Below are positions 17,308 to 35,987 of a stretch of DNA of 64,000 nucleotides, piece by piece. How positions within the stretch are numbered: position 1 is the first letter of the stretch; each line of letters begins with the position of its first letter. Below the pieces are notes generated by a model that worked only from the letters and a program-made list of their open reading frames with translations, did not search any database and was not told the origin of the DNA. The stretch comes from Firmicutes bacterium HGW-Firmicutes-16 (lineage in GTDB: Bacteria > Bacillota > Clostridia > Oscillospirales > Oscillospiraceae), in NCBI GenBank assembly GCA_002841545.1, contig PGZZ01000003.1, positions 1 to 64,000 on the forward strand, written 5' to 3'. Both the position numbers and the translations under genes were made by a program.

Positions 17308-17414
17308 TTCGTGTTAAATAAACGCCGCCTACGAAGACCGATAGTTCGTGCGGAGCTGCGCAATGGCGCGCAAAAAATGTCGATACTTTGCTTGATTATG
17401 CTCCGGGAAAAGCC

Positions 17415-17443: not shown

Positions 17444-17479
17444 GTTTAAGCTCTCAAAAGAGCGCAAGTATTTGAATAT

Positions 17480-17557
<78 letters not shown>

Positions 17558-18461: not shown

Positions 18462-19640
18462 TTATATATAAAATTTACTCACCAAATCCATAGCACTGCG
18501 CTTTTGCTCCGTTAGCACGTGGGCGTATTTGTTCAGCGTAGTTGAAACATCCGCGTGACCTAAGATTATGCTTAGAGTTTTTATGTCCATACCCGCCTCA
18601 ATTGCCCTTGTCGCAAAGGTGTGACGGGTGCAGTGGTAGTTAGCATTTTCTATGCTCGCTGCTTTTATGAGCCGCTGAAAGGTGTCTTGGAGGGTGCGTG
18701 GCTCTGTGCAGCACCCAAGCTCATTACAGATTACGAAGTTTTGGTTGTCGTAGGTCTCTTCTGCTCGGGACTTCTCTTTTTCTCTTTCGGCTCTGTATTC
18801 CTTTAGATAATCAATTAAAAAGTCTGGTAAAGGAATGTCGCGAACTCCGTTCTTGCTTTTGGGACTGCCGATTACAATTTCTGTTTTGCTCTTGGTGGTG
18901 TCCATGGATGGCAGCCTTCCGAGAGTTCGGCGAATCTTTAAAAGGTTATTGTTAAAATCAATATCATGCCACTGGAGACCGGCAAGTTCTCCCACCCTTA
19001 TTCCCGTTGCCAGACAAATCAGTATGCCAATTTTGTAGCGCTCCTTACTGACTTTAATTTCATCGAAAAGTCGCTGGTGCTCGTCCCGTGTTAATACACG
19101 CATTTCGACCTCAGTGACCGTCGGCAGCGAAACAAACTCGGCATAGTTTTTTGGAATAAGCCCGTTTTTGCATGCCTGCTTTAGCGCTGAGTGTATCATC
19201 AGGTATATGTTCCTTACGGTTTTGGCAGACAAGCCCTCGTCAGGATGCTTTGAATTACCATGCTCGTATTGTTCATTCAGAAAACGCTGCAGGGTGTCAA
19301 CCTTTAGCTTTTCAAGTCTTATATGACCTATCATTGGAATAATGCGTTTGTCGATATGTCCACGGTAATTAACATATGTAGACTGCTTGACCTTTGGCCT
19401 TGCATACATTTCAAGCCACTGCGTAAACCATGCGCCGACCGTTATTTTGCTCGGCTCTGTATATTCCCCATTAAGAAAAGAGGTGAGCTTCTGCTCCATT
19501 TTCTCCTCGGCTTCGTTCTTCGTTTTGCCATAGCAGGTAATTTTCTTTCGCTTACCAGTGATGTCGTCGGTGGAATAGTAGTAAATTACCTCCCAACCGC
19601 CGCTTTTGCGTTCGTGAGCCTTGGGGCTAATTTTTCCCAA
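18462..19640 (-). CDS. int: Tyrosine integrase (Tn916/ICE type)
   Basis: A 392-aa site-specific recombinase that inserts and excises the element at the tRNA end. An N-terminal arm-binding domain (WEVIYYYSTDDITGKRKK) precedes a SAM-like core-binding domain and the catalytic domain. Catalytic residues are seen in GIRVGELAGL (Arg), HCTRHTFATR (His-x-x-Arg) and LGHADVSTTLNKYAHV (His and Tyr nucleophile). The start is most likely TTG 19640, five bases after a full GGAGGTGA ribosome site; the in-frame GTG at 19649 overlaps that site. It reads toward attL, as usual. Confidence 0.95.
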   Translation of the reverse strand: MGKISPKAHERKSGGWEVIYYYSTDDITGKRKKITCYGKTKNEAEEKMEQKLTSFLNGEYTEPSKITVGAWFTQWLEMYARPKVKQSTYVNYRGHIDKRIIPMIGHIRLEKLKVDTLQRFLNEQYEHGNSKHPDEGLSAKTVRNIYLMIHSALKQACKNGLIPKNYAEFVSLPTVTEVEMRVLTRDEHQRLFDEIKVSKERYKIGILICLATGIRVGELAGLQWHDIDFNNNLLKIRRTLGRLPSMDTTKSKTEIVIGSPKSKNGVRDIPLPDFLIDYLKEYRAEREKEKSRAEETYDNQNFVICNELGCCTEPRTLQDTFQRLIKAASIENANYHCTRHTFATRAIEAGMDIKTLSIILGHADVSTTLNKYAHVLTEQKRSAMDLVSKFYI

Positions 19641-19786
19641 TGAGGTCACCTCCGTTATAAACTCATATGATGATAAAAAGTTGGTACAATTGTTCTTCCG
19701 ATGTGATTACCGCCGTCGCTTTGGAAGTAATTATGTATCAACTTTTTCGATTTTGTTGATACAGTACCGACTTTAATTCGGTATGG

Positions 19787-23354: not shown

Positions 23355-23663
23355 ATGAAAATAATGCGAAACAAGATAATCACGGTGCGCCTCACTGAAG
23401 AGGAACTTGCCTTTCTCAAAACAAAGGCAGAGGAATCGTCAATGAAAATGGAGCCGCTAATAAGAGCTCTCATCGGTGGTCAAAGGTTTCAAAAATGTCC
23501 CCAGGAGGAAAAGCGAAGGCTGTTACGTCAATTGTCGGGTATCTCCAACAACCTAAGTCAAATCTTTAGATGTGCGGATTTGCATGACCCGGGTATGGCA
23601 GAAATGAAGGGAGAAATTGAGGCTTTGCAGACCAAAATCCTAAAGAAGGCAAAGGAACTTTGA
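23355..23663 (+). CDS. mobC: MobC-type relaxosome accessory protein
   Basis: A 102-aa DNA-binding protein: an N-terminal ribbon-helix-helix (ITVRLTEEELAFLKTKAEES) and the MobC-family segment LSGISNNLSQIFRCA. It would bind oriT and help the relaxase nick DNA for mobilisation. AAAGGAG precedes the ATG, and the relaxase begins one base after its stop codon. Confidence 0.85.
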   Translation: MKIMRNKIITVRLTEEELAFLKTKAEESSMKMEPLIRALIGGQRFQKCPQEEKRRLLRQLSGISNNLSQIFRCADLHDPGMAEMKGEIEALQTKILKKAKEL

Positions 23664-23664
23664 T

Positions 23665-24999
23665 ATGGCGATAACGAAAATATTCGCCATACGCGAGGGA
23701 CTAAAAAAGTCCGTTCAGTATGCCGCCAACGAGCAGAAAACCACCTTGGACGGAGCCATCGCGTATGCGATAAACCCCGACAAAACGGAGCAGAGACTTT
23801 TTGAAAGCACCCTCAATTGTGGCTCAGTGAAAACCGCTTATGACGATATGCAAGCCACGAAAGAGCGCTACGGCAAGACCGACGGTGTTTTGGGTTACCA
23901 CTTTATTCAGTCCTTCAGGCCAGGAGAAATAACGCCAGAAAAAGCGCATGAGTTAGGCGTTGAGTTCGCAGACCGTCTCTTTGGCAATCGCTTTGAGGCG
24001 GTCATCGGAACCCATTTAGATAAACAGCACCTACATAACCATGTGGTGATAAATTCCGTTTCATTTGAGGATGGGAAAAAGCTTCGATGTAACATTCAGA
24101 CCTATTTCAAAGAGGTGCAGCACGTCTCCGACGAGTTGTGTCGAGAGAACGGCTTGTCAGTGATTGTCCCCAAAGGCCACGGAAAACAGTATCAACAATG
24201 GAAAGCGGAAAAGGAGGACAAGCCCACCATCCGGGGTCAATTGCAAAACGATATAGACGGTTTGATTTCACAGTCACTCAACTTCACAACCTTTTTGGAT
24301 GCGCTGAGGAAAAACGGTTACACGGTGAAATACGGCAACGTGAAGCACACCGCCATCAAGCCGCCTTATAGTGAAAGGTTCATACGTCTGGATAGCTTGG
24401 GTGAAAACTACACCGATACGGCTATTTCGGATAGAATACAAACTATGAAAAGCTGGAACCGTAAACACTTACCAGAGCCCAAAAAGCTCTATCACTATAA
24501 CGGTAACTTCAAGAATACGTCCAAAATCACGGGACTACGGGCGCTGTATTTTCACTATGTTTACCTCCTCCGAGGGGCGACCAAGGGCACCGGAAACAAA
24601 AAGGTTAGCCGATACCTTTTAGAGGATACCGTCAAGTTTGATCGCTATCTTGCCCAACATAAGTTCTTGGTGAAAAAGCAAATTGAGAATACGAGCGAAC
24701 TACACATTATGAAAGAGAGCCTCGAAAAAGAAATAGCGTTCCAAATATCGGTGCGCAAGCCACTGTATAAAGTCAGGGCAAATGCCGAGGACAAGGAGGA
24801 GTGTAAGGCTGTGTCGAAGAAAATTGAGGAGCTAACAGGAAGCTTGAAAAACCTCCGAAGTGATATGCGAATGTGCGGGCAGATTGAGGCGGATTTGGAC
24901 AAAATACGTGAGAAGATAAGTCAAGTGATCGAGCTTGAGAAAGGGTCTGAGCCGAAAAAGAGTAAAGAAAGAGAAAAGACTCGAGGCTTAGCAATTTAA
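23665..24999 (+). CDS. Relaxase/mobilisation nuclease (Tn1549-like, MOBP type)
   Basis: A 444-aa relaxase that would nick oriT, stay covalently bound through a tyrosine and pilot the strand into a recipient. The nuclease domain occupies about residues 1-250: a candidate active-site Tyr lies in VQYAANEQKT, and the metal-binding triad is in GTHLDKQHLHNHVVINS near 115-131. The C-terminus is a charged coiled coil. AAGGAAC lies before the ATG, which follows mobC by one base. No coupling protein or secretion genes follow, so transfer would require a helper element. Confidence 0.92.
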   Translation: MAITKIFAIREGLKKSVQYAANEQKTTLDGAIAYAINPDKTEQRLFESTLNCGSVKTAYDDMQATKERYGKTDGVLGYHFIQSFRPGEITPEKAHELGVEFADRLFGNRFEAVIGTHLDKQHLHNHVVINSVSFEDGKKLRCNIQTYFKEVQHVSDELCRENGLSVIVPKGHGKQYQQWKAEKEDKPTIRGQLQNDIDGLISQSLNFTTFLDALRKNGYTVKYGNVKHTAIKPPYSERFIRLDSLGENYTDTAISDRIQTMKSWNRKHLPEPKKLYHYNGNFKNTSKITGLRALYFHYVYLLRGATKGTGNKKVSRYLLEDTVKFDRYLAQHKFLVKKQIENTSELHIMKESLEKEIAFQISVRKPLYKVRANAEDKEECKAVSKKIEELTGSLKNLRSDMRMCGQIEADLDKIREKISQVIELEKGSEPKKSKEREKTRGLAI

Positions 25000-25060: not shown

Positions 25061-25459
25061 ATGACATCACAGTACGAGCGGCAAGGTGGCAGCTACACGG
25101 AAATAGATGGGATTATGTTCCCAAATTTATTGGAGCAAAAGCAGGAATACACAATCGGGAAATACGGTCGTCAGCACCTCCGCTACCTTATAGAGCATCG
25201 GCGCGTGTTGTTTACGAACCTAAAAACCACCGGCAAGCTGAACTCATATATCCATGATTTTGACACTCAAGCGAGGGCGCAAGAGGAGCGCATAGTCCGG
25301 CAAATGGCGGCAGCGGAGGGCACCGACGAACGACTAAAAGTCACCGATCCACTACGCTGGACCGGACTAATGAACAATTATAGGAGCTGTGCGGAGGAAA
25401 TTGCAACAAGTAAGGTGCTAGAACAAAACAGCACAATAAAGATAAAATATAAATTATAG
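25061..25459 (+). CDS. TnpV-like transposon-encoded protein
   Basis: A 132-aa protein of the TnpV group, common at the ends of Clostridia mobilizable transposons such as the Tn4451 class. Recognisable segments are RYLIEHRRVLFTNLKTTGKL and LRWTGLMNNYRSCAEEI. No biochemical function is established to my knowledge. AAAGGGTG precedes the ATG. It is the last gene of the left, transfer-related half; base composition drops sharply after it. Confidence 0.75.
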   Translation: MTSQYERQGGSYTEIDGIMFPNLLEQKQEYTIGKYGRQHLRYLIEHRRVLFTNLKTTGKLNSYIHDFDTQARAQEERIVRQMAAAEGTDERLKVTDPLRWTGLMNNYRSCAEEIATSKVLEQNSTIKIKYKL

Positions 25460-25511
25460 TGGAGATTTATCGACTTCTAAATATGATGTAAATGAATTAC
25501 ACTTAAAAAAC

Positions 25512-25540
25512 TTGACATTTCAATACAGGCCTGTTATAAT
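25512..25540 (+). promoter_or_regulatory. Consensus promoter of the restriction cargo
   Basis: TTGACA (25512-25517), 17-base spacer and TATAAT (25535-25540) match the sigma-A consensus perfectly. Transcription would start near 25547 and give a leader of about 135 nt before the gene at 25683. The leader can close on itself (GACAAC at 25548 with GTTGTC at 25647-25652) and is fully overlapped by the antisense unit below. Confidence 0.85.
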
Positions 25541-25551
25541 CACGCTAGACA

Positions 25552-25618
25552 ACAAAAAACTCCCGTCTATACACTGGGCATAGATGAGAGTTGTCCGCAT
25601 CTTGCGACACGGGTCGGC
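25552..25618 (-). ncRNA. Putative antisense RNA to the cargo leader
   Basis: On the minus strand TTGACA (25654-25649), an 18-base spacer and TATACT (25630-25625) form a strong promoter. About 65 nt downstream lies a textbook terminator: stem 25580-25592 with 25558-25570 (13 positions, three of them unpaired in the middle), 9-base loop, then six Ts (25559-25554). Between them a second hairpin forms (CGCA/TGCG around 25597-25608). The product would be a two-hairpin RNA of about 65 nt complementary to the leader driven by the promoter at 25512. No open reading frame of note lies in it. Countertranscribed RNAs of this design control plasmid replication and toxin genes; the target here is inferred. 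Confidence 0.65.
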
Positions 25619-25682
25619 AAACTTAGTATATCGCATCTAGTGGGCTGTTGTCAAATTAAAATTTGCAAGGAGATCCTAAAAT

Positions 25683-25982
25683 ATGGTCTATATTGACGCG
25701 GTACACTATGAAACGGATATTCATGGATGTGAAGTAATCAGTAAATTAAAATGGACGAACACCTTGACTGAACAAGCAGCAAATGTTTGCACAAAGAAAG
25801 AGATGATTGATTTCATCAATAAAAACCCTAATAGTACCAAAACCAAGTATTTAAAAAATAATGGTTGGCAGGGATATCAATGGGTTATTGGCGAAGATGT
25901 TCGTGTGGTTGATAATGCTTACTTAAGAACGGATGCTAATAACATCAAAAAAGACAATCTTGAATCATTGCCAAGGTTCTAA
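25683..25982 (+). CDS. DUF3892-like small protein heading the cargo
   Basis: A 99-aa protein resembling the DUF3892 family, function unknown. Two beta-rich segments (IHGCEVISKLKWT; YQWVIGEDVRVVD) are followed by the family tail VDNAYLRTDANNIKKDNLESL. AAGGAG lies 11 bases before the ATG. It follows the leader overlapped by the antisense RNA and precedes the half HsdS gene, with an 11-bp hairpin between. The tail pattern V-x-V-x-(D/N)-x-Y-(L/V)-R-T recurs in the 53-aa protein at 30717. It could sense or modulate the restriction operon; that is speculation. Confidence 0.6.
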   Translation: MVYIDAVHYETDIHGCEVISKLKWTNTLTEQAANVCTKKEMIDFINKNPNSTKTKYLKNNGWQGYQWVIGEDVRVVDNAYLRTDANNIKKDNLESLPRF

Positions 25983-25991
25983 TTAAATTTT

Positions 25992-26020
25992 AAGTAGCAC
26001 TGAGCCCAGCAGTGCTACTT
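25992..26020 (+). terminator. 11-bp hairpin between DUF3892-like gene and hsd genes
   Basis: A perfect stem (25992-26002 with 26010-26020) with a 7-base loop follows the stop by 9 bp. No T run follows, so it may be a weak terminator, an attenuator or an mRNA-stabilising element setting different levels for the first gene and the hsd genes. Confidence 0.5.
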
Positions 26021-26042
26021 AATACTATAATAGGAGGGTATT

Positions 26043-26606
26043 ATGCAAAAAAAATTAAAAGATGTTGCCGATATTAAATTTTGTTTGTCCGGAAGCGGCA
26101 AAGGTTCGGAAAGGACAAAATGGTTAATGCCGATAAATCTTCTGGAGAATAATATGGTTTCTGAAATTGTTACAAATGATAATTATCAGCGTGAAAAAAA
26201 CAGCAAAATAAGCAAAGAAGATATAATTATAAAAAGGATAAGTCCCTCGTTTATAAATTACATTGATAAAGTTGAAGATGATGTATACGCAAGTGGAAAT
26301 TTAATCATTGTAAGAGCAAAAAAAATTGAAGCAAAGTATCTTGCGTATCTTTTAAATAAAAACATCGGTAAAATGATTGATGCCTATTCTGGTTCCACTA
26401 TACCGTCAATAGGACGGAAAGATGTTGAAGATTTTATAGTACCTATATTACCTGCTGAAAGTCAGAAAGTCATAGGGGAATTATGGTTATCTAGCGGAGA
26501 ACTAAAAAAGCTAAGAAATAGATTATCTGAACTAGAAAAAATAAAAACAAATTATTTAATAAGTGATTTTATGAATCAGCAAATTGGAGGAAGAAAAAAT
26601 GGCTAA
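26043..26606 (+). CDS. Half-size HsdS-like specificity subunit
   Basis: A 187-aa protein with one target-recognition domain (about residues 1-140, ending PSIGRKDVEDFIVPIL) and one coiled-coil spacer (ELKKLRNRLSELEKIKTNYL). Full HsdS proteins have two of each. Single-domain HsdS proteins can dimerise and give palindromic specificity, or pair with the full HsdS. AGGAGGG precedes the ATG, and the gene overlaps hsdM by eight bases. Because a complete hsdS lies three genes downstream, this extra half subunit is unusual. It may be an alternative specificity module or a remnant kept in frame. Confidence 0.75.
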   Translation: MQKKLKDVADIKFCLSGSGKGSERTKWLMPINLLENNMVSEIVTNDNYQREKNSKISKEDIIIKRISPSFINYIDKVEDDVYASGNLIIVRAKKIEAKYLAYLLNKNIGKMIDAYSGSTIPSIGRKDVEDFIVPILPAESQKVIGELWLSSGELKKLRNRLSELEKIKTNYLISDFMNQQIGGRKNG

Positions 26607-28194
26607 TAAGAAAACAACTTTTGAAGATATAAAAAACGCATTGTGGGCAGGAGCAAATACATTCAGAGATAATATCGATGCATCTAATTATAAAGACTAT
26701 GTGCTTTCAATGCTATTTGTCAAATATTTAAGCGACACCTTTGAGGAGAGCGTAGAAAATCTAAAAAAAGAATATGAAGGTATTCGCCTGGAAAGGCAGA
26801 TTGATAACTTGCCATTTGTACTTAGAGAAGAGCACACATTTGATTATCTATTGAAAAACAAATATGCCGTTGATATTGGAACGAAAATCAGCGAAGCATT
26901 AACGGGCATTGAAAGCTCAAACTCTATACTTGGCGGAATATTTAGAGGTATTGATTTCAATAGCGAAAACAATTTAGGTAAAAAAGAGCAAAAAAATCCT
27001 ATTCTTAGAAATTTGCTCGACGACTTCGCTGACCTTGATTTAAGGCCGAGCAATATTGAAACCAACGAAAATCAAGTGCCTGCCGATGTTGTTGGTGATG
27101 CATATGAATATATGATTGGCGAATTTGCAACTATGGCTGGTAAAAAAGCAGGAAGTTTCTTTACGCCACAACAGGTATCAGAAATTATGGCACAAATAGT
27201 TGCACCACAAGAAAGCGATCGTGTATATGACCCCACTTGCGGTTCGGGTTCATTGCTTATTCGCGCGGCTCGTAAAGGTGGACTTGATAAAGTGTCTATC
27301 TACGGCCAGGAGGTTAACAATTCCGCTATCTCTATGGCAAGAATGAATATGTTTATCCATGACATTAAAGACGCGCATATCGCATGGGGTGATACACTCG
27401 CAAATCCTCAGCACCTTGATAGTGACGGAAATCTGATGAAGTTTGATTGTATCGTCGCCAACATGCCATTTAGCAAGGATAAATGGGCAGAAGGTTTTAA
27501 CCCGGGTGGAGAGGTATCCACAGATGATGGTGAAGAACTTAACGGAAAAAAAGGAAAGAAAAAAGAATTTAAGATGGAGCCTGCACTAGATAGGCACCAT
27601 AGGTTCGACGTGGGAGTCCCACCGACAAGTAAAGGGGACTGGGCATTCCTTCTTCATATGATTAACAGCATGAGCGGAAACGGAAGAGTGGCTGCGGTTG
27701 CACCCCACGGTGTGCTTTTCAGAGGTGCAGGGGAAGGCAGAATTCGTCAAGCTGTTATTGAAAAAAACTTAATTGATGCGGTTATTGGTTTGCCCGAAAA
27801 CTTGTTTTATGGCACTTCTATCCCTGCTTGTGTTGTTGTTTTTAAAAAAGGCAGAACCACGACCGATATTTTGTTTGTCGATGCTTCGAAAGATTTTTCC
27901 AAAGAAAAATCAAAAAACAAACTTAGTGACGATGATGTAAAAAAGATTGTTGACACTTATAAAGCATTTACAAAAGGCGAAAGTGTAGAATACGACAAGT
28001 ATAGCCATTCTGCTCCATTAACTGAGATTCAAGAAAATGAATATAACCTAAACATTCCACGTTATGTTGATACTTTTGATGAAGAAAAAATCATTGATAT
28101 TGAGGCCATCAACTCTGAAATAGCTATTATTAAAGTGCAAATTGCCGAAGTAGAAGCACAGATGGAAACGTATATGAAGGAGCTTGGAATATGA
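26599..28194 (+). CDS. hsdM: Type I restriction-modification methyltransferase HsdM
   Basis: A 531-aa N6-adenine methyltransferase subunit. The N-terminal helical HsdM_N domain (FRDNIDASNYKDYVLSMLFV) is followed by the AdoMet motif DPTCGSGSLLIRAAR near residue 210 and the catalytic motif IV near 287. Motif IV reads NMPF instead of the usual NPPF/Y. ATG 26599 is chosen because GGAGG precedes it; an in-frame start at 26584 would include the ribosome site. It overlaps both the upstream half hsdS and the downstream dinD (ATGA), a tightly coupled operon. Confidence 0.95.
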   Translation: MANKKTTFEDIKNALWAGANTFRDNIDASNYKDYVLSMLFVKYLSDTFEESVENLKKEYEGIRLERQIDNLPFVLREEHTFDYLLKNKYAVDIGTKISEALTGIESSNSILGGIFRGIDFNSENNLGKKEQKNPILRNLLDDFADLDLRPSNIETNENQVPADVVGDAYEYMIGEFATMAGKKAGSFFTPQQVSEIMAQIVAPQESDRVYDPTCGSGSLLIRAARKGGLDKVSIYGQEVNNSAISMARMNMFIHDIKDAHIAWGDTLANPQHLDSDGNLMKFDCIVANMPFSKDKWAEGFNPGGEVSTDDGEELNGKKGKKKEFKMEPALDRHHRFDVGVPPTSKGDWAFLLHMINSMSGNGRVAAVAPHGVLFRGAGEGRIRQAVIEKNLIDAVIGLPENLFYGTSIPACVVVFKKGRTTTDILFVDASKDFSKEKSKNKLSDDDVKKIVDTYKAFTKGESVEYDKYSHSAPLTEIQENEYNLNIPRYVDTFDEEKIIDIEAINSEIAIIKVQIAEVEAQMETYMKELGI

Positions 28195-29036
28195 GTAATA
28201 TTGCAAAATATGATGTTGAAACATTTGACAGCATTAAGCATATTAACGAAGATGGTCAAGAGTTCTGGTATGCGCGCGAGCTTCAAAAAGTTTTAGAATA
28301 TACCGAATGGCGTAATTTTGAAGGAGTCATCGGGAAAGCGCAAACCGCTTGTGAACAAAGCGGAAATCAGATCGATGATCATTTTGTTGATGTCAACAAA
28401 ACGATAGAGATGCCTAAAAAGGCAACAAAATCCGTTAATGACTACGAACTTTCCCGATATGCTTGTTATCTTATAGTTATGAACGGTGATCCTCGGAAAG
28501 AGGTTATTGCACTCGGTCAAACATATTTTGCTGTTAAAACAAGGCAACAGGAGATTATTGAGAATTATGAAAATCTTTCGGAAGCTCAAAAAAGGCTCGC
28601 TATCAGAAACGAAATAGTTAATCATAACAAGGCTTTGGCGGATGCCGCAAATAAAGCAGGCGTTAAAGAGCCCGTTGAGTTTGCTGTTTTCCAAAACTAT
28701 GGCTATAGAGGCCTTTATGGTGGAATGGATATGAAAGCTATTCATGCACACAAAGGGTTGAAAAAAAGCCAAAAGATACTTGACCATATGGGCAGTACAG
28801 AACTTGCCGCCAATTTATTCCGCGCAACACAAGCAGAAGAAAAATTGCGAAGAGATAATGTGCAAGGCAAAGCAAATGCGAACAAAACACATTATGAGGT
28901 TGGCGCAAAGGTTAGACAAACCATCAAAGAACTCGGCGGTACCATGCCGGAAGACTTGCCTACTCCCAACAAAAGCATACAGCAAATTGAGCGTGAAATC
29001 GAAAAGAAAAAGTTGCGAGGAAATGACAATGAATAA
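28191..29036 (+). CDS. dinD: DNA-damage-inducible protein D homologue
   Basis: A 281-aa DinD-family protein. The N-terminal Bro-N/DinD-like domain (DGQEFWYARELQKVLEYTEW) is followed by the conserved LSRYACYLIVMNGDPRKEVI block. E. coli DinD binds RecA and disassembles its filaments, and is SOS induced. Here its ATG overlaps the hsdM stop by four bases, so it is translated with the methyltransferase. DinD homologues inside type I loci may protect the host during restriction or limit RecA at cut ends; that role is inferred. No LexA box was seen directly upstream. Confidence 0.88.
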   Translation: MSNIAKYDVETFDSIKHINEDGQEFWYARELQKVLEYTEWRNFEGVIGKAQTACEQSGNQIDDHFVDVNKTIEMPKKATKSVNDYELSRYACYLIVMNGDPRKEVIALGQTYFAVKTRQQEIIENYENLSEAQKRLAIRNEIVNHNKALADAANKAGVKEPVEFAVFQNYGYRGLYGGMDMKAIHAHKGLKKSQKILDHMGSTELAANLFRATQAEEKLRRDNVQGKANANKTHYEVGAKVRQTIKELGGTMPEDLPTPNKSIQQIEREIEKKKLRGNDNE

Positions 29037-29433
29037 CATAGATGGGTTTGATTTTTCAAAATCAAGCTTACCTAAACTCGATTTTGATACCTCAGCAATA
29101 ACAAGACAGTTTGCTCAACAGCAGGAGGCAATGAATGCTTCCCTGAACGCTATATCGGAACATAACCGCAAAAAAGATGCTGCTTTGTTTGAAACGGCTG
29201 AAGCAAGCGTTGCGCAAAAAGAATTATTGAAGCAACAACTTGTTGAAGTGAAAGAGCAAAACCAGTTTCTTAAAGACAACTACACAACGTTAAAAGAACT
29301 TTACGAAATGACAAAGAAAGAAGCTGCAAGTAGTGCAAAAGATGCAAAGGTGAATAGAGTTTTTGGTTGGGTATCTTTTTCCGTTGGCACACTTATAGGC
29401 GTCGCCGGTGTAGTTGTTGGAATTATAATTTAG
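29029..29433 (+). CDS. Tail-anchored coiled-coil membrane protein
   Basis: A 134-aa protein I cannot assign to a family. A polar N-terminus (GFDFSKSSLPKLDFDTSAIT) leads to a long heptad region (residues about 35-100, LLKQQLVEVKEQNQFLKDNY and flanks). A single hydrophobic segment lies at the extreme C-terminus (GWVSFSVGTLIGVAGVVVGI), so the bulk would face the cytoplasm. ATG 29029 has GAGG eight bases upstream and overlaps the dinD stop by eight bases; an ATG two codons earlier is possible. It lies between dinD and hsdS. It might hold the restriction complex or damaged DNA at the membrane; this is speculation. Confidence 0.65.
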   Translation: MNNIDGFDFSKSSLPKLDFDTSAITRQFAQQQEAMNASLNAISEHNRKKDAALFETAEASVAQKELLKQQLVEVKEQNQFLKDNYTTLKELYEMTKKEAASSAKDAKVNRVFGWVSFSVGTLIGVAGVVVGIII

Positions 29434-29444
29434 GAGGTCTACTC

Positions 29445-30701
29445 ATGACCCAAGAAATAAAACGGCGAATTGAACAAATCAATTGTGGTGAAGTTCCGCA
29501 AGGATATAAAAAAACAGCAGTTGGTATAGTGCCGGCTGAGTGGCAAAAAGTCAATTTAAATACCTTGCTGGAATTTAAAAACGGTATAAATGCAGAGAAA
29601 GGAAAGTTTGGAACAGGAATAAAGATGATTAGTGTTATGGACATTTTGGAGAATGAGCCGATATACTATTCTACTATTAAAGGGTCTATTGATATTGATG
29701 CCGATACATTAGAAAAATATTGTGTGAACTTTGGGGATATATTATTTCAACGCAGCTCTGAAACTTTTGATGACGCGGGGAAATCCAATGTATACTTGGA
29801 TGAAGAACACACGGCTACGTATAGTGGATTTGTAATACGAGGTAAAAAGATATCAGACTATGATCCCTCATATTTGAATGAGTTACTTAAAACGCAGAGC
29901 ATTAGAAAGCAAGTAATTCGACTATCAGCCGGCTCTCAGCACATCAACATAGGACAAGACGCCCTTTCTGAAATCGTCTTAAATATGTCCAAGATAGATG
30001 AGCAACACGATATTTCAGAAGTTCTTTCCAAGTGGGTCGAGGCCGTTTCTTTACAAAAAAAGTTGATTGAGAAACTGGAATTACAGAAAAAAGCCCTAAT
30101 ACAGAAACTACTTACCCCTAAAAAGGGGTGGAACCCCGTTTCTCTTGGAGAGATTTTAAAGGAAGCAAGTACGAAAACTGAGATTATCAACCAATATCCG
30201 ACGATTTCTTCGACGAAAAAGGGGCTGTTTTTGCAAAGTGAATATTTTGATAAAGACGTGGCTTCAGAAGATAATGTGGGATATAAAGTATTAAAACTCG
30301 GGCAAATAGTACTTAGTCCTCAAAATTTGTGGTTAGGAAATATCAATTTCAATAACAAGTATGAGTTTGGAATGGTGTCACCATCATATAAAATATTTGA
30401 CATAAGCGAGAACTGTAATAGGGTGTTGATTTCTACAATCATGCAAACGCCAAGGATGTTATATCAATATGTTTTATCTTCGGAGCAAGGAGCAAGTGTT
30501 GTTCGCAGAAATCTTAATATGGATCTATTTAATCAAATTGTAATACATCTTCCCATAATAGATAAGCAAAATTGTATTGCAAATCAAATCGAAAAATTTA
30601 ATACGTTGTTTGAACTTGAAACCCAAAAGCTCGACAAACTAAAACAGCAGCAAAAAGCTATGCAACAGCTTTTATTAACAGGAATTGTAAGAGTAAGTTA
30701 A
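29445..30701 (+). CDS. hsdS: Type I restriction specificity subunit HsdS
   Basis: A 418-aa subunit that reads the two halves of the recognition sequence. Two target-recognition domains (about 25-200 and 235-390) are separated by a coiled coil (SLQKKLIEKLELQKKALIQKLL) and closed by a second one (LETQKLDKLKQQQKAMQQLL). The repeated KAL/AMQ-Q-KLL/LLL tail is the usual type I conserved region. TAGGAGG lies four bases before ATG 29445; upstream in-frame ATGs fall inside the coiled-coil gene. The assembly would be M2S with HsdM, plus HsdR. Confidence 0.93.
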   Translation: MTQEIKRRIEQINCGEVPQGYKKTAVGIVPAEWQKVNLNTLLEFKNGINAEKGKFGTGIKMISVMDILENEPIYYSTIKGSIDIDADTLEKYCVNFGDILFQRSSETFDDAGKSNVYLDEEHTATYSGFVIRGKKISDYDPSYLNELLKTQSIRKQVIRLSAGSQHINIGQDALSEIVLNMSKIDEQHDISEVLSKWVEAVSLQKKLIEKLELQKKALIQKLLTPKKGWNPVSLGEILKEASTKTEIINQYPTISSTKKGLFLQSEYFDKDVASEDNVGYKVLKLGQIVLSPQNLWLGNINFNNKYEFGMVSPSYKIFDISENCNRVLISTIMQTPRMLYQYVLSSEQGASVVRRNLNMDLFNQIVIHLPIIDKQNCIANQIEKFNTLFELETQKLDKLKQQQKAMQQLLLTGIVRVS

Positions 30702-30716
30702 CAGGAGAGATATGCT

Positions 30717-30878
30717 ATGACAAAAACTAAGCAAGAAGTTCTTAATGACATTAGCAAAGGATACAATGTAAATGCATTTGACAATCACAACCATAAAACT
30801 AAGGTTATTAATGTTAACGATGAATATGTACGGACTGTACACGACAAAAAAGATTGCGCTAAATTAGGGGATTTATAA
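30717..30878 (+). CDS. 53-aa protein with DUF3892-like tail
   Basis: A small open frame between hsdS and hsdR with a good ribosome site (AGGAGA) and no overlap with other genes. Its second half, VINVNDEYVRTVHDKKDCAK, matches the tail pattern of the DUF3892-like protein at 25683 (V-x-V-x-D-x-Y-[LV]-R-T then a Lys/Asp-rich stretch). The N-terminal half is polar and unrecognised. It may be a miniature paralogue that competes with or partners the larger one. A 7-bp hairpin follows (30890-30911). Confidence 0.6.
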   Translation: MTKTKQEVLNDISKGYNVNAFDNHNHKTKVINVNDEYVRTVHDKKDCAKLGDL

Positions 30879-30889
30879 GATAAAGATAA

Positions 30890-30911
30890 GCAGAGCCGTT
30901 TAATGCTCTGC
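30890..30911 (+). terminator. Hairpin before hsdR
   Basis: GCAGAGC (30890-30896) pairs with GCTCTGC (30905-30911) across an 8-base loop, 30 bp before hsdR. It lacks a T run, so partial attenuation of the nuclease gene relative to the methylase is possible, but unproven. Confidence 0.4.
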
Positions 30912-30940
30912 TATATCTGCATATAGAGGAGATAGCCGAA

Positions 30941-33900
30941 ATGCCAAGTCATACCATTTTTAATGAAAGACCTGAATGCCAAGACAGGTTTATTCAGTTT
31001 CTTATCAATATGGGCTATGAGTATGTTTCACGCAGTGAGGCGGAAAGTAAAAGAAAAAATTTGAATACAGTTTTGTTTGAAGATGAGCTCATTCGTTTTC
31101 TTAAAAAACAAACTTATAAATATAATGGTCACGAACTGCTTTTTTCGGGTGAGTCTATTACCAAAGCGGTAAATGCTTTAGATGCGTCGCTTTTACAGGG
31201 GCTTTCGATGGCAAGCAAAGAAATATATAACCTCATTACATTGGGAATTAGCTTAGAGGAAAGCATTGCCATCGATAAAGATATTCCTGTAAGGCAATCC
31301 TTCGATTTGCGTTATGTGGATTTTGAGCATCCTGCCAATAATATCTGGCAAGTAACAGAGGAATTTAGCGTGCAAAGATCAAACGGAAGTTATTCACGAC
31401 CTGACGTTGTACTTATGGTAAACGGCATTCCTTTTGTTGTCATCGAGTGCAAAAAATCAAGCATTGATGCAAGAGAAGGTATTTTACAAAATGTCAGAAA
31501 TATGATGCCCGACTATATTCCTCAGCTTTTCAAATTTAGTCAGCTGGTTATGGCATTAAATCCCCAAAAAGTAGTTTACGGTACCAGTGGCACAACTGCC
31601 GATTATTTTGTGGAATGGCGCGAAGATGACTACGAATGGCAAAATGAGGTGTGTCGCAAATGTTCTCCAGATGGGCAGATTTTGGAACAGGATAAAATAG
31701 CCGCTTCTATGCTTGATAAAAAGCGTTTGCTTGACCTTGTGCAAAACTTTATTTTATACGATAACAATATCAAGAAAATTGCAAGACACCAACAATATTA
31801 TGCTGTAAATAAATCTATGGGCAGAATTAACGGAATAGATGGAAAGGACAGCAAGGGTGGTGTTATTTGGCATACCCAAGGTAGTGGAAAATCTCTCACT
31901 ATGGTTATGCTTGTGAAAAAAATTCAGCTTGAAAAGGGCAAGGAAAACCCAAGATTTATTATTATTACTGATAGGGTTAATTTGGATAAGCAGATTAGGG
32001 ATAACTTTGCAAACTCTCAAATGGCACCCGTTCGTGCGGCAACCGGAAAAGGTCTAAAAACACTTTTGAAAGACAAAAGCAATATTGTCATAACTACCCT
32101 TATCAATAAATTTGAAACTGTTTGCAAAAACAAATATCTCGAGCCTGATAGTGACCGCTTTTATGTTCTTATCGACGAGGCTCACCGTTCGCAGTATAGC
32201 TCTATGTATAACTATATGCGTGAAGTCCTGCCCAATGCCACCTTGATTGCCTTTACAGGTACACCGCTTATATCTAAATCGAAGAAAAACACTTATAACA
32301 AATTCGGAGAACCTATTCATAATTACACAATGAGAAGATCCATAGAAGATGGAATTACCGTTCCTCTTGTTTATGAAGGACGAAAAGTGCAGCAGGAAGA
32401 GCCAACGCTTAAAATTAACGACTATTTTGACAGTCTAACAAGCGATTTGCCTAAAGAATTAAAGGACAAACTATCAGATAAATTCAGCAGGTTTAAAGCT
32501 ATTTCCGAAGCTCGGAGCAGAATTAACCTAATCGCCTTTGATATTATAGACCATTATAAAAACTATTGTATTCCAAACGGCTTAAAAGCAATGGTTGTAT
32601 GTTCGTCTCGTGCTGCAGCTGTTGAGATGTACCACATTTTAAAAAGCGATCCGGCAATCACCCCTCGTGTTGTTATTACATTTGGAGATAAACGAGAGGG
32701 TGACGATGATGAAGCCACAACAGAGGCTATTAAAATAATTAAAGATTATCGTGAAAAAATGGTGAAACCACTGTTTGGCGATAGCGTTGAAAAATATGAT
32801 GACCACGTCTGTGAAGATTTTAAAAATCCTGAAGGCGCCATCAATATTTTGATTGTAAAGGATAAATTGTTGACCGGTTTTGATGCTCCTGTTGCAGGCG
32901 TGCTATATCTTGATAAGCCTATTCAAAGTCATTCTTTGTTGCAGGCAATTGCGAGAGTAAACCGAGTATACAAAGGCAAAGATTTTGGCCTTGTAGTCGA
33001 TTACTGGGGTGTTTTTGGAAAGCTCAATTCTGCAATTGATATATATGATGATGCGGAATCGGGAATGAATGGCTTTGACAAAGCCGATATTGACGGTGCT
33101 ATTTTTGGACCGGTAGATGAAAAAAACAAACTTGCAAAAGCCTATAAAGAATTAGTAAATATGTTTAAGGAACTCGGTAAAACAGCATCATCAGATGTTT
33201 GGCAAAAGAGCCTAGCCGAAGAATCTAAGCGAAAAGAGTTTTATAATCGATTAAAAACTTTTGCTAATTTATTGAATCTCGCATTATCAAATAGGGATAT
33301 ATTTATTGAGGTAGGTTCTGAACATATAGATAAATATCGTAGTGAATATCTGTTTTACAAAAAACTAAAAGATGCTGTTGCTTTGCGTTATGATGACGAA
33401 CCTGACCTTTCAAAATATGAGCAAGGAATGAAAAACTTGATTGATACTTTTGTCAATGCAACGGAGATATTTACAGTTGTAAGGCCTATATCAATAGGTG
33501 ATGAAAAAGCAATGAGAAAATTGCTTGAAAATATGGGTTCCAACGAATCAAGGGCAGATGCTATCAAAACAAGAATTGAATCTACACTCAAGCAAATAAG
33601 ATACGATGATCCATTGTTATTTGAAGAATTCTCGCATAAAATCAAAAAGACAATCGAAATTTATAACCTAACTCGTGATGCTGATCAATATTATGCAACT
33701 ATGGAAGTAATGGCAGACGATTTTCGAAATGGAATTACATCACAGGATTATCCGTCTCAAATTGCCAGTGACAGCGATGCAAAGGCTTTTTATGGTGCTG
33801 TTGTTACAAACATTAAGAAAAGCAATATGATAACCATTACACCAGAAAAAGAAGAAATCATTGCGGAATATTCTTTTAAAATCAAAGAGGCCGTGAGCCA

Positions 33901-34078
33901 AAATGCAAAACGAGATTGGAAACATAACGAAGTTGCACATAAGGCAATACACAGAAATCTTGACGACTGTTTGTTTGATATGTTTGAAGCGTTAGGGGTT
34001 GTTATTGATAAATCTAATGTTGATATGCTGGATTTGATTATCGATGAAACAATGAGAGTGGCGGTGGCGCGATACTAA
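30941..34078 (+). CDS. hsdR: Type I restriction endonuclease subunit HsdR
   Basis: A 1045-aa motor and nuclease subunit that cuts unmodified DNA. The PD-(D/E)xK nuclease lies near residues 153-171 (RPDVVLM...VVIECKKS). The helicase has Walker A TQGSGKS near 311, DEAH box LIDEAHR near 410, FTGTPL near 440 and motif VI QAIARVNRVYKG. The C-terminal region is helical and docks HsdM. AGAGGAG precedes the ATG. All key residues are present, so restriction should be functional. It overlaps the next gene by one base. Confidence 0.96.
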   Translation: MPSHTIFNERPECQDRFIQFLINMGYEYVSRSEAESKRKNLNTVLFEDELIRFLKKQTYKYNGHELLFSGESITKAVNALDASLLQGLSMASKEIYNLITLGISLEESIAIDKDIPVRQSFDLRYVDFEHPANNIWQVTEEFSVQRSNGSYSRPDVVLMVNGIPFVVIECKKSSIDAREGILQNVRNMMPDYIPQLFKFSQLVMALNPQKVVYGTSGTTADYFVEWREDDYEWQNEVCRKCSPDGQILEQDKIAASMLDKKRLLDLVQNFILYDNNIKKIARHQQYYAVNKSMGRINGIDGKDSKGGVIWHTQGSGKSLTMVMLVKKIQLEKGKENPRFIIITDRVNLDKQIRDNFANSQMAPVRAATGKGLKTLLKDKSNIVITTLINKFETVCKNKYLEPDSDRFYVLIDEAHRSQYSSMYNYMREVLPNATLIAFTGTPLISKSKKNTYNKFGEPIHNYTMRRSIEDGITVPLVYEGRKVQQEEPTLKINDYFDSLTSDLPKELKDKLSDKFSRFKAISEARSRINLIAFDIIDHYKNYCIPNGLKAMVVCSSRAAAVEMYHILKSDPAITPRVVITFGDKREGDDDEATTEAIKIIKDYREKMVKPLFGDSVEKYDDHVCEDFKNPEGAINILIVKDKLLTGFDAPVAGVLYLDKPIQSHSLLQAIARVNRVYKGKDFGLVVDYWGVFGKLNSAIDIYDDAESGMNGFDKADIDGAIFGPVDEKNKLAKAYKELVNMFKELGKTASSDVWQKSLAEESKRKEFYNRLKTFANLLNLALSNRDIFIEVGSEHIDKYRSEYLFYKKLKDAVALRYDDEPDLSKYEQGMKNLIDTFVNATEIFTVVRPISIGDEKAMRKLLENMGSNESRADAIKTRIESTLKQIRYDDPLLFEEFSHKIKKTIEIYNLTRDADQYYATMEVMADDFRNGITSQDYPSQIASDSDAKAFYGAVVTNIKKSNMITITPEKEEIIAEYSFKIKEAVSQNAKRDWKHNEVAHKAIHRNLDDCLFDMFEALGVVIDKSNVDMLDLIIDETMRVAVARY

Positions 34079-34806
34079 TGAATGAGTATAGATTTAATTT
34101 AGGGCCACCATTTAATGAAGCCGTGATTGAAGTGCAACATAAAAACGTTAAGAATGTTAATCTTAAAGTGTTTAGAGATTTGAGAATTGTTCTATCTGTT
34201 CCGCATAGCGTTCCCAATGAATGGATTATTTTATACTTAAATAAAAAATCTGAATGGCTGACAAAACAGCTTTCAAAGTACAAACAATCAAGTGGTTACA
34301 ACAACTTAAATAATATTAAAAGCGGAAGCTCTACCCAACTTTTAGGCAAAGACCGAAGAATTAAAAAAGTTCAATCATCAACCAACTATGTTGGAGAAGA
34401 TGAAAAGAATATTATCTTATACCAACTAAATGTTGACGATGAAGAACTATCTCAAAGAATACTTGCAAAATGGTGGAGAGATAAAGCAAACGCCGTATAT
34501 TCAAATGAACTAGATATGCTATATGACAAAATATTTCGTAAATATAATGTTGATAAGCCCGCCTTACAAATACGAAAAATGAAAACCCAATGGGGCAGTT
34601 GTACACCTTCTAAAAGCAAAATAACACTAAATGAATATTTATTAAAAGCGGATTTGCGTTGCATTCAATATGTAGTTTTGCACGAACTTACACACCTACT
34701 GTATCAGTATCACAATAACAATTTTTACGATTTTTTAACGATACAGCTACCAGATTGGAAAACAAGAAAAGAACAGCTCGATAAAGAAGTTGTGCAAGGG
34801 CTATAA
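34078..34806 (+). CDS. YgjP-type zinc metallopeptidase of the restriction locus
   Basis: A 242-aa protein of the YgjP/SprT-like family (PF01863 type). The active site is HELTHLLYQYHNNNFY near residues 201-216, two His and Glu plus a downstream polar segment; the preceding KTQWGSC is the family hallmark (WGSC). Such M48-like proteins regularly accompany type I hsdR genes. They are related to the DNA-protein crosslink protease SprT, which suggests a role at covalent or stalled protein-DNA complexes, but this is not proven. It starts within the hsdR stop (TAATG). Confidence 0.82.
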   Translation: MNEYRFNLGPPFNEAVIEVQHKNVKNVNLKVFRDLRIVLSVPHSVPNEWIILYLNKKSEWLTKQLSKYKQSSGYNNLNNIKSGSSTQLLGKDRRIKKVQSSTNYVGEDEKNIILYQLNVDDEELSQRILAKWWRDKANAVYSNELDMLYDKIFRKYNVDKPALQIRKMKTQWGSCTPSKSKITLNEYLLKADLRCIQYVVLHELTHLLYQYHNNNFYDFLTIQLPDWKTRKEQLDKEVVQGL

Positions 34807-35067
34807 TGAATATAAATTTAAACGGGTTTGAGGTTTGCGAAAATAATGCCGCGTTGGAATAAAGCGGGGTAACACCTGTCCCACCATTTCCACCCCTAAG
34901 CCAAAGGCTAAACTTTTTAGGTAAAAATAGTGTACGTTCAAAAGCACGTTCAAGACGACGAAATCACATAGTGTTAGGTGAAATTAAATGGTGCCAAAAG
35001 TTCTGAATATTGACTAAAAATATAATAAAATAACCATTTAAGGCCATACAACATGCTGATAAGGAAA
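34807..35067. other. Right end of the element, non-coding
   Basis: No convincing gene. The stretch includes CTAAACTTTTTAGG (34908-34921), which resembles CTAACTTTTTAGG at the left end (17595-17607), and the paired TACGTTCAA/CACGTTCAA repeats (34933-34954). AT-rich sequence leads to attR. It is the likely right-hand attachment region containing integrase and Xis binding sites. Confidence 0.6.
34933..34954 (+). repeat. Right-end paired TACGTTCAA repeats (putative arm sites)
   Basis: TACGTTCAA then CACGTTCAA, start to start 12 bp, followed by G: the same arrangement and orientation as 17635-17656. It lies 113 bp inside attR, compared with 77 bp inside attL for the left pair. Confidence 0.6.
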
Positions 35068-35318
<251 letters not shown>

Positions 35319-35662
35319 TTGTTAGTATCAAGACTTCGAGGGCTATCCATAACAGTCGACAGCACTCACCTTAATAGACACATGGCAAAGAAATTTGCGA
35401 AAGAAGTAGAAATAAAGTTTCTATAATATGTACATTTTGAGCACAATTAGCAGCAGTTGCATTTTTGTGAGATTCGCATTATCCATAAAATACGAGATAA
35501 GTTTTGGCGGTATAATATGAAAAACGAACATACTGAACTATTATCCCAAATGATAGCGTCTTACAAAGAAAAGGCTAAGATGCTTCTTCAATCTGATGCA
35601 GATTATACTGAAGTCTGTTATTTGTCAAAGAAAAATAAGGAATATGGTAAATATGATGGAAA

Positions 35663-35872: not shown

Positions 35873-35987
35873 GCCAGGATGTCAGCACGCATTGACAATT
35901 TCCTAATTTACATGGTAATATTATTCTACAAAATATGGCATATTTTGCCGATATTTGCTTTTTATTCTAATAAATTGGGGAGAGCAT

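What the first reader, a model, noticed from the sequence alone, without database searches (positions are those of the whole stretch)
26043..34806. Type I restriction operon with DinD, an anchored coiled coil and a SprT/YgjP-like protease
Overlapping start/stop codons join half hsdS, hsdM, dinD and a tail-anchored coiled-coil gene, then hsdS, a 53-aa gene, hsdR and a metallopeptidase. A RecA-filament antagonist and a protease related to crosslink repair enzymes, in one operon with a DNA-translocating nuclease, suggest a managed response to restriction breaks or blocked translocation rather than bare restriction.
Basis: partly seen in the sequence, partly recalled or inferred. Interest (0 to 1): 0.65.

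Follow-up and report, generated by a model that had tools for sequence, protein, structure and literature searches.

The report
Mobile restriction system with break-binding cargo
A transferable bacterial DNA-defence operon carries, besides the usual three restriction genes, a conserved half-size target-recognition subunit, a dedicated protease, and a DinD protein whose tail is predicted to fold like a Deinococcus protein that holds broken DNA ends, which would make a link between DNA cutting and break handling directly testable.

Summary
The operon is real and intact at the stated coordinates, but the unit is larger and differently built than described. It is cargo of a 17.6-kb integrated mobilizable element (46-bp tRNA-Met repeats, integrase, relaxase). 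HsdM-centred sampling shows a recurrent core: half-HsdS, HsdM, HsdS, HsdR, YgjP-like metallopeptidase. The half-HsdS is no remnant: it precedes hsdM in 13 of 13 family loci of the window's phylum (9 of 14 in Pseudomonadota; at most 2 of 33 lower-scoring HsdM loci), and its sequence follows HsdM while the full HsdS is reshuffled (20 of 21 close pairs). YgjP follows hsdR broadly and is already reported in the EPEC RRDM island. DinD is exchangeable cargo between hsdM and hsdS, where DinD/BRO/RhuM/ORF6N-type genes recur (10 of 25 loci); other cargo prefers the S-R interval. New here: DinD's C-terminal domain matches Deinococcus DdrC, a DNA-end-protecting, circularising protein (Z 14.6, 1.9 A over 114 residues; a 58-sequence profile also ranks DdrC first in PDB, E 0.02). 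This supports, without proving, a break-handling role for DinD. DinD is dispensable, the coiled-coil gene has one relative, and nothing ties YgjP to crosslink repair. New variant of a known kind.

The parts
17512..17557 (+). left attachment repeat, 3' part of tRNA-Met(cat) gene 17480-17556
   Evidence: 46-bp perfect repeat with 35068-35113; ARAGORN tRNA
18462..19649 (-). tyrosine integrase of the mobile element
   Evidence: PF00589 110.7 bits
21424..23205 (+). DUF927-domain protein, probably replication or primase type
   Evidence: PF06048 30.9 bits; role inferred
23355..23663 (+). NikA/MobC-like mobilization protein
   Evidence: PF21983 49.8 bits; PF05713 20.6 bits, below its cut-off
23665..24999 (+). 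MobA/VirD2-type relaxase
   Evidence: PF03432 141.1 bits
25512..25540 (+). perfect sigma-70-like promoter, TG before -10
   Evidence: 12 of 12 matches, 17-nt spacer
25683..25982 (+). DUF3892 small protein, first gene of the unit
   Evidence: PF13031 27.7 bits; same gene at the same place in L046
25990..26022 (.). stem-loop between DUF3892 gene and half-hsdS
   Evidence: a stem-loop in the strongest 5% of random stretches in 7 of 31 loci only
26043..26606 (+). half-HsdS: one target recognition domain plus one long helix
   Evidence: PF01420 35.6 bits; AlphaFold2 pLDDT 87.3, helix 138-181; conserved in the family
26599..28194 (+). HsdM, type I N6-adenine methyltransferase
   Evidence: PF02384 344.8 bits, TIGR00497 299.4 bits
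28191..29036 (+). DinD: BRO-N domain plus DdrC-like C-terminal domain (about residues 128-250)
   Evidence: NF008573 419.6 bits; DdrC match
29029..29433 (+). coiled-coil protein with C-terminal transmembrane segment
   Evidence: hydropathy 2.27 over 19 residues at 115-133; one relative, L046 57%; coiled coil judged from sequence and weak matches
29445..30701 (+). full HsdS
   Evidence: PF01420, two stretches
30717..30878 (+). 53-aa ORF without known relative
   Evidence: (no family over a cut-off)
30889..30912 (.). stem-loop between the 53-aa ORF and hsdR
   Evidence: listed as terminator-like on the - strand
30941..34078 (+). HsdR, type I translocase/nuclease
   Evidence: TIGR00348 501.7 bits, PF04313, PF18766, PF22679; nuclease motif
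34078..34806 (+). YgjP-like zinc metallopeptidase
   Evidence: PF01863 159.4 bits; HELTHLLYQYH
35068..35113 (+). right attachment repeat (tRNA-Met 3' fragment)

Best explanation
This is a complete type I restriction-modification cassette carried by an integrated mobilizable element. Shown: a core of half-HsdS, HsdM, HsdS, HsdR and a YgjP-type metallopeptidase recurs as a unit; the half-HsdS is inherited with HsdM, its recognition domain included, while the full HsdS is exchanged; the gap between hsdM and hsdS is a recurrent entry site for DinD/BRO/RhuM/ORF6N-type genes, here DinD plus a membrane-anchored coiled coil. Inferred: HsdM2S (full S) gives the variable bipartite specificity; two half-S with two HsdM give a second, fixed, probably palindromic specificity that shares HsdM and perhaps HsdR. 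HsdR cuts unmethylated DNA; DinD, through its DdrC-like domain, binds the ends or single-stranded tracts so produced, protects or holds them, and so keeps RecA and nucleases off, limiting self-damage or repair of invading DNA. YgjP, coupled to hsdR, most likely processes or turns over HsdR or a protein bound near it.
For: Gene order across phyla. Half-S in 13 of 13 family loci of the window's phylum, detected in 9 of 14 Pseudomonadota, at most 2 of 33 lower-scoring HsdM loci. Half-S versus M identity: Spearman 0.70, against 0.41 and 0.52 for the two halves of full S, 23 loci (jackknife differences 0.29 +/- 0.11 and 0.18 +/- 0.09); in 20 of 21 pairs with HsdM identity of at least 0.75 half-S is more alike than either half of S; its TRD was more conserved than its helix in 8 of the 9 closest disjoint pairs (L039/L040: 0.99 against 1.00). 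YgjP-HsdM 0.88, YgjP-HsdR 0.83, 23 loci. DinD C-terminal domain and DdrC: Foldseek E 5.4e-6; Z 14.6, rmsd 1.9 over 114 residues, next unrelated row Z 6.0; sequence profile of 58 DinDs ranks DdrC first among 177,635 PDB sequences, E 0.022, same region. Repeated joining of DinD and cassette: 12 changes for 17 labelled rows on the DinD tree, 5 forced; 7 changes, 5 forced, on the HsdM tree. Slot preference in the 25 non-seed loci: DinD/BRO/RhuM/ORF6N type 10 loci versus 1 other in M-S, 1 versus 10 in S-R, Fisher p 3.5e-4, grouping chosen after seeing the data. A natural DinD-HsdS fusion is an active specificity subunit (Btr190I, passages of PMC4996451), and a PADLOC specificity model of 717 positions begins with a DinD-like part.
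Against: No biochemistry. DinD is absent from most family loci and truncated in L038, L039 and L040; its identity follows HsdM less well (0.42) than HsdR (0.78) or YgjP (0.90) in the same 10 loci. The DdrC match rests on one predicted model (pTM 0.56); the tool warns that mostly helical models without clear relatives reached a best Z near 14; an 8-sequence DinD profile did not list DdrC up to E 0.1; a profile comparison with a single DdrC segment gave probability 3.9%, pairwise E 0.011. RhuM, the other common occupant of the slot, shows no DdrC match by sequence, so the slot does not select for end binding as such. DinD-seeded loci also break the slot rule: AAA ATPases or AlbA-type genes in M-S (L047, L050, L062), ORF6N in S-R (L047). 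Half-S was not detected in 5 of 14 Pseudomonadota loci, and an E. coli locus of the family is just M-S-R-M48.
Confidence: 0.42

Rival explanations
1. Embedded-defence rival: DinD, RhuM, Abi and other cargo are independent defence or addiction genes that share the R-M promoter and travel with it, without a biochemical link to restriction ('guilt by embedding').
For: Cargo is diverse; DinD is often absent or truncated; DarTG2 embedded between hsdS and hsdR is reported in the EPEC RRDM island (PMC12255303, passages); DinD alone is a PADLOC candidate, PDC-S13.
Against: Cargo type depends on position (Fisher p 3.5e-4); DinD overlaps a neighbouring hsd gene or cargo gene in 15 of 18 family loci; a DinD-HsdS fusion works as an S subunit (PMC4996451); the 44 close same-strand neighbours of 66 DinDs without detected R-M genes show no family in more than 2 members.
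Confidence: 0.35
2. Regulator rival: DinD and RhuM act through BRO/KilA-type DNA-binding domains as regulators of the operon or of resident prophages (antirepressor-like), and the C-terminal domain only dimerises.
For: Bro-N, RhuM and ORF6N proteins share the slot; a small regulator, RptR, controls a related R-M island (PMC12255303, passages); here a perfect promoter and a stem-loop precede the operon.
Against: Truncated copies in L039 and L040 keep the C-terminal part and lose BRO-N, though these may be decaying.
Confidence: 0.12
3. Half-S is a spare specificity gene or a decayed hsdS used for switching by recombination.
For: Type I systems with duplicated hsdS genes for switching are numerous (PMC7394358, search listing only); NgoAV makes a half-S by a frameshift in a variable tract (PMC9577141, passages).
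Against: No shared repeats between half-S and S in the window; in 14 loci tested half-S has 18-27% identity to the S of its own locus wherever the match is longer than 70 residues; it is conserved while S varies.
Confidence: 0.05
4. YgjP is a crosslink-repair (SPRTN/Wss1-like) protease clearing HsdR or MTase stuck on DNA, rather than an HsdR turnover protease.
For: Weak profile matches to SprT-like, WLM and Wss1.
Against: Best family is YgjP (159 bits against 29 for SprT-like); no DNA-binding extension was found by Pfam; it accompanies HsdR generally.
Confidence: 0.12

Closest known systems
RRDM island of enteropathogenic E. coli (RptR-HsdM-HsdS-DarTG2-HsdR-M48), PMC12255303 (abstract and passages read)
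   Same: type I R-M with a zinc metallopeptidase gene after hsdR, a small gene in front, and defence cargo embedded in the operon
   Different: no half-HsdS and no DinD among the seven ORFs described; cargo in the S-R interval; small gene is RptR; whether its HsdM belongs to this family was not tested
BlihIA of Bacillus licheniformis, PMC12429846 (abstract, passages and section 2.1 read)
   Same: full HsdS plus a one-TRD HsdS in one active R-M locus; its authors say models for the interplay are lacking
   Different: the word peptidase does not occur in the text; DinD was not looked up there; family membership of its HsdM not tested here
hsdRSMS variant of Staphylococcus xylosus, PMC10030836 (passages read)
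   Same: a short, conserved HsdS beside a long, variable HsdS
   Different: gene order R-S-M-S; its short S is described as conserved throughout without typical TRD features
NgoAV, Neisseria gonorrhoeae, PMC9577141 (passages read); L085 is assumed to be this locus
   Same: dinD between hsdM and hsdS (L085); a half-S is active and recognises GCAN8TGC (paper)
   Different: half-S comes from a frameshift within one hsdS; no YgjP hit within the fetched 20.8 kb of L085
Btr190I, Bibersteinia trehalosi, PMC4996451 (passages read)
   Same: dinD attached to hsdS in a type I system
   Different: fused gene; its authors note only that the fusion does not prevent activity
DdrC of Deinococcus radiodurans, PMC5436757 (abstract and outline read)
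   Same: C-terminal domain fold matches DinD residues 129-248
   Different: N-terminal half is not superposed in the best alignments (recalled: winged helix, not BRO-N); described as Deinococcus-specific

Membership tests
Type I restriction-modification system | HsdM with N6-adenine methyltransferase and HsdM_N domains | tested here: met
   PF02384, PF12161, TIGR00497; motif NMPF instead of the usual NPPF, shared by 7 of 37 family loci
Type I restriction-modification system | HsdS with two target recognition domains | tested here: met
   29445-30701, PF01420 with two stretches
Type I restriction-modification system | HsdR with PD-(D/E)xK nuclease and SF2 motor | tested here: met
   PF04313, PF18766, PF22679; PD...ECK and DEAH motifs
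Type I restriction-modification system | bipartite m6A motif and restriction activity | not testable with these tools
   needs methylome and plaque assays
Half-S family described here | one-TRD hsdS directly upstream of hsdM | tested here: met
   26043-26606; 13 of 13 family loci of the window's phylum (with the earlier loci)
Half-S family described here | half-S inherited with HsdM, not reshuffled | tested here: met
   for the 23-locus set; window versus L046 alone does not show it (half-S 0.50, S halves 0.61 and 0.32)
RRDM/RptR islands | M48-type metallopeptidase after hsdR | tested here: met
   34078-34806
RRDM/RptR islands | rptR as first gene | tested here: inconclusive
   first gene is DUF3892; RptR's own sequence was not compared
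DinD family | NCBIfam DinD model over its cut-off | tested here: met
   419.6 bits, cut-off 242
DinD family | inhibition of RecA filaments | not testable with these tools
   known for E. coli DinD (recalled; cited in PMC10602874)
DdrC-like domain | DdrC C-terminal fold | tested here: met
   Z 14.6, rmsd 1.9, 114 aligned, on a predicted model; profile E 0.022; weak by hhalign
DdrC-like domain | DNA end protection, circularisation | not testable with these tools
   needs purified protein
SprT/SPRTN crosslink proteases | SprT as best-matching family | tested here: not met
   best family is YgjP-like, 159.4 bits, against SprT-like 29.3; SprT NCBIfam models far below cut-off
SprT/SPRTN crosslink proteases | cleavage of DNA-crosslinked proteins | not testable with these tools
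   needs an assay
Integrated mobilizable element | direct att repeats at a tRNA, integrase, relaxase | tested here: met
Integrated mobilizable element | no transfer apparatus of its own | tested here: inconclusive
   none recognised among the ORFs listed between the repeats and the proteins scanned; smaller ORFs not scanned

The most novel reading that the evidence does not exclude
DinD proteins are the widespread relatives of the supposedly Deinococcus-only DdrC: a BRO-N head on a DdrC-type end-binding domain. In this half-S type I R-M family DinD works as an accessory subunit that captures and shields the breaks made by HsdR, while a fixed half-S gives the cassette a second, constant recognition site beside its exchangeable one. 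Restriction and break handling would then be one machine.
Probability: 0.24. Interest if true: 0.78.

Novelty: new variant of a known kind. Interest (0 to 1): 0.58.

Why it matters
What happens to DNA ends after type I restriction, and how a cell survives its own nuclease, is poorly known. If cassette DinD binds those ends as DdrC does, the question becomes testable with one purified protein and one deletion. The DinD-DdrC link would also turn a protein described as Deinococcus-specific (abstract of PMC5436757) into one branch of a family found in many phyla and on viral contigs and plasmids. A constant half-HsdS beside a variable HsdS, seen in several phyla, calls for a dual-specificity or regulatory model of type I enzymes, which authors of a recent paper say is lacking (PMC12429846).

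Tried and rejected
Half-S as decayed or recombining hsdS: disfavoured. Bipartite palindrome shared upstream of half-S in L038, L067, L240 and L241: none in at least 3 of the 4 (part of the L038 stretch is masked). Stem-loop before half-S as a family mark: 7 of 31 loci only, so not claimed. Known RNA family in 25300-35400: none up to E 1. The coiled-coil gene as conserved part: one relative, L046; PDB matches to it are weak (best E 0.012). 53-aa ORF: no relative in the 205 loci; a different small ORF sits there in L046 and L048. L302 'DinD' dropped from the counts: 17.7 bits, in fact a Bro-N protein; it is still one of the 17 labelled rows, on a long branch, in the tree. RhuM as DdrC-like: no match by sequence. 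hhalign of the DinD profile with one DdrC segment: weak. A first, 8-sequence DinD profile did not find DdrC up to E 0.1. Recurrent partners of DinD without R-M genes: no family in more than 2 of 44 close neighbours (one of the 44 is an N6_N4 methylase); the 66 loci include some cut by contig ends. Paper searches: 'DinD' with 'type I restriction' 3 papers, with 'hsdM' and 'restriction-modification' 2, 'PDC-S13' none, 'YgjP' with 'restriction' 1, unrelated, 'DdrC' with 'DinD' 1, no homology claim; the library holds open-licence papers only, so absence from print is not shown. Not done: HsdM of BlihIA, S. xylosus and RRDM were not compared with the family; counts from the DinD-seeded scan (best 80 of at least 575 relatives) are not used as frequencies; the seed loci (window, L066) are left out of the 12- and 13-locus counts; 12 of the 45 lower-scoring HsdM matches were not fetched; the HsdM searches scored at most 5 or 3 candidates per genome in the rows listed; cargo after hsdS in L060 and L242, where no hsdR is in view, was not scanned or counted. 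On re-checking I lowered the best explanation from 0.45 to 0.42 and the novel case from 0.25 to 0.24, and raised the embedding rival from 0.33 to 0.35, because, the tool's warning on helical models and the slot exceptions in DinD-seeded loci.

Full report
What is there. The nine genes from 25683 to 34806 form one + strand unit: DUF3892, half-HsdS, HsdM, DinD, coiled coil with a C-terminal membrane segment, HsdS, a 53-aa ORF, HsdR and a YgjP-like metallopeptidase. Start/stop overlaps join half-S/M (8 nt), M/DinD (4 nt), DinD/coiled coil (8 nt) and R/YgjP (1 nt) (sequence). A perfect sigma-70-like promoter lies at 25512-25540.

Surroundings. A tRNA-Met gene at 17480-17556 and a 46-bp copy of its 3' end at 35068-35113 bracket a tyrosine integrase, a DUF927 protein, a NikA/MobC-like protein, a MobA-type relaxase and the R-M unit. 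The R-M unit is therefore cargo of an integrated mobilizable element of about 17.6 kb. The own genome shows no other DinD and no other HSDR_N match, but has a second, separate YgjP gene, so the cassette's YgjP is an extra copy.

How the neighbourhood was counted. A DinD-seeded scan of public genomes (best 80 of at least 575) showed the order half-S, M, DinD, S, R, YgjP in Spirochaetota, Bacillota, Pseudomonadota and others and, on a contig that ends in hsdR, in an archaeal MAG. Because that scan is biased to DinD, frequencies were taken from searches with HsdM. Of the 45 I fetched 33. In the high-scoring family the half-S precedes hsdM in 13 of 13 (in L242 only 52 residues are seen before the contig ends), YgjP follows hsdR in 11 of 11 in which hsdR is in view, and DinD is present in 6 of 13, or 5 of 12 without the window. 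Among the 33 others a half-size S precedes hsdM in 1 (L255), or 2 counting a 116-residue piece before a truncated hsdM (L261), and YgjP follows hsdR in 16, two of the 33 being cut before hsdR. In Pseudomonadota, 14 of 398 genomes, the centre G299 (L066) included, passed 1e-170: half-S detected in 9 of 14 (one only 105 residues), YgjP in 12 of 14, DinD in 2 of 14, of which one is the centre. A relative of this HsdM (query from L304, 60-80% DNA identity) is in 534 of 5426 complete E. coli genomes; the one region read is M-S-R-M48 without half-S or DinD.

The half-HsdS. Pfam finds one specificity domain; AlphaFold2 gives one target recognition domain and one long helix (pLDDT 87.3). In 23 loci with all five core genes, pairwise identity of half-S follows that of HsdM (Spearman 0.70) better than the halves of the full HsdS do (0.41, 0.52); jackknife differences 0.29 +/- 0.11 and 0.18 +/- 0.09. 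All of these pass a Mantel test, so this is a difference of degree. It is plain in close pairs: L039/L040 HsdM 1.00, half-S 0.99, HsdS 0.38; L237/L238 0.98, 0.95, 0.42. In 20 of 21 pairs with HsdM of at least 0.75 half-S is the more conserved; in disjoint pairs 9 of 11. In 8 of the 9 closest disjoint pairs the recognition domain is more conserved than the helix (in L039/L040 it is 0.99 against 1.00), the reverse of what is usual for HsdS (general knowledge). The window/L046 pair is not a good example: half-S 0.50, S halves 0.61 and 0.32. Half-S therefore behaves as a constant part of the enzyme. On the HsdM tree the half-S label needs 4 changes, not fewer than shuffles give often (90 of 500). 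NgoAV shows that a half-S can be active with a symmetric site (PMC9577141, passages), S. xylosus that a short S can be needed beside a long one (PMC10030836, passages); which of these applies here is open.

DinD. It belongs to the DinD family (419.6 bits) and is a PADLOC candidate, PDC-S13. The AlphaFold2 model (58 sequences, pLDDT 85.2, pTM 0.56) has a BRO-N head and a helical C-terminal domain. Foldseek ranks chains of three DdrC entries first (best E 5.4e-6); VIA-align gives Z 14.6, rmsd 1.9 over 114 residues, model 129-248, with de novo helical repeats next at Z 6.0. The tool cautions that helical models can reach such Z by chance; what speaks for a true match is the gap to the next rows and an independent result: the sequence profile of the same 58 DinDs ranks DdrC first among 177,635 PDB sequences (E 0.022 to 0.055), over 128-245, collinear with the structural match. 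Against: an 8-sequence profile did not list DdrC, and hhalign with one DdrC segment is weak (probability 3.9%). DdrC binds ss and ds DNA, protects it from nucleases, anneals strands and circularises linear DNA (abstract of PMC5436757). One paper in the library names both DdrC and DinD, without linking them.

DinD moves. On a tree of 89 DinDs the 17 rows labelled as lying in this R-M family need 12 changes, at least 5 forced by well-supported branches (shuffled mean 15.8, as low in 1 of 500; one of the 17, L302, is misassigned). On the HsdM tree DinD needs 7 changes, 5 forced (shuffled mean 12.6). So the two are partly inherited together and repeatedly joined or parted. In the 10 loci with full DinD, DinD-HsdM correlation is 0.42, against 0.78 for HsdR and 0.90 for YgjP. 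Copies in L039 and L040 keep only about residues 171-275, and L038 lacks the start and about 130-170. In the 18 family loci with DinD the gene overlaps the next one up- or downstream in 15.

Cargo position. In the 25 family loci other than the two seeds, the M-S interval holds a DinD, Bro-N, RhuM or ORF6N protein in 10 (L030, L038, L039, L040, L060, L295, L296, L300, L302, L304) and other cargo alone in 1 (Abi_C, L236); the S-R interval holds such a type in 1 (RhuM, L306) and other cargo in 10 (Abi_2, DUF3800, AAA_21/RloB/Fic, YhcG nuclease, UPF0149/CSD, DUF6119). Fisher p 3.5e-4; without L304, where no hsdS was found, 1.1e-3. The grouping was made after seeing the data, relatedness is not corrected for, tiny ORFs were not counted, and L060 and L242 carry unscanned genes after hsdS. 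DinD-seeded loci give exceptions: AAA ATPases in M-S of L047 and, by likeness, L050, an AlbA-type gene in M-S of L062, ORF6N in S-R of L047. The 44 close same-strand neighbours of 66 DinDs without detected R-M genes show no family in more than 2.

YgjP. The motif HExxHx5H is intact in 30 of 31 family proteins, the gene starts within 8 nt of the hsdR stop in 25 of 31, and its identity follows HsdM (0.88) and HsdR (0.83). It accompanies many type I systems, and an M48 gene ends the published RRDM island, where the passages I read report no separate test of it (PMC12255303). HsdR turnover is my preferred inference, since host ClpXP is known to limit HsdR (mentioned in PMC12255303); crosslink repair is possible but unsupported.

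Verdict. The break-management idea is partly supported, through DinD's DdrC-like domain and its position, not through YgjP or the coiled coil. As a system it is a new variant of type I R-M; embedded cargo, M48 and half-S each have precedents.

Noticed in passing
window 25061-25459: TnpV-type transposon protein just upstream of the R-M promoter (PF14198).
   Followed up: no
window 19787-20989: DUF6076 protein inside the mobile element, on the - strand next to the integrase.
   Followed up: no
window 35955-40076: Large repetitive protein beginning just after the element, ending in what look like S-layer homology repeats (by eye).
   Followed up: no
L307 (NZ_CP047635.1) 7998-17330: A Klebsiella plasmid carries M-S-YecA-cold-shock-domain protein-R-SprT-type protease; 344 of the 436 plasmid records with a match to this HsdM at 1e-100 are Klebsiella, and 380 of the 436 are predicted conjugative.
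   Followed up: partly
L308 (NZ_CP099557.1) 7451-17482: Aliarcobacter plasmid with a 180-residue S, hsdM, RhuM, hsdS, KAP NTPase, an ATP-binding protein (AlbA-like by eye) and hsdR: the same core with RhuM in DinD's place.
   Followed up: partly
L053 5613-8355: Treponema locus with half-S, a 396-residue S and a KilA-N protein before hsdM, so extra specificity genes can stack up.
   Followed up: no
   Followed up: no
window 27460-27471, HsdM: HsdM has NMPF instead of NPPF at the catalytic motif, shared by 7 of 37 family loci that form one clade.
   Followed up: partly
upstream of half-S in L058, L067, L240, L241, L046, L237 and window: A strong stem-loop before half-S (7 of 31 loci), in several of these after a small ORF; possible attenuator or terminator.
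   Followed up: partly
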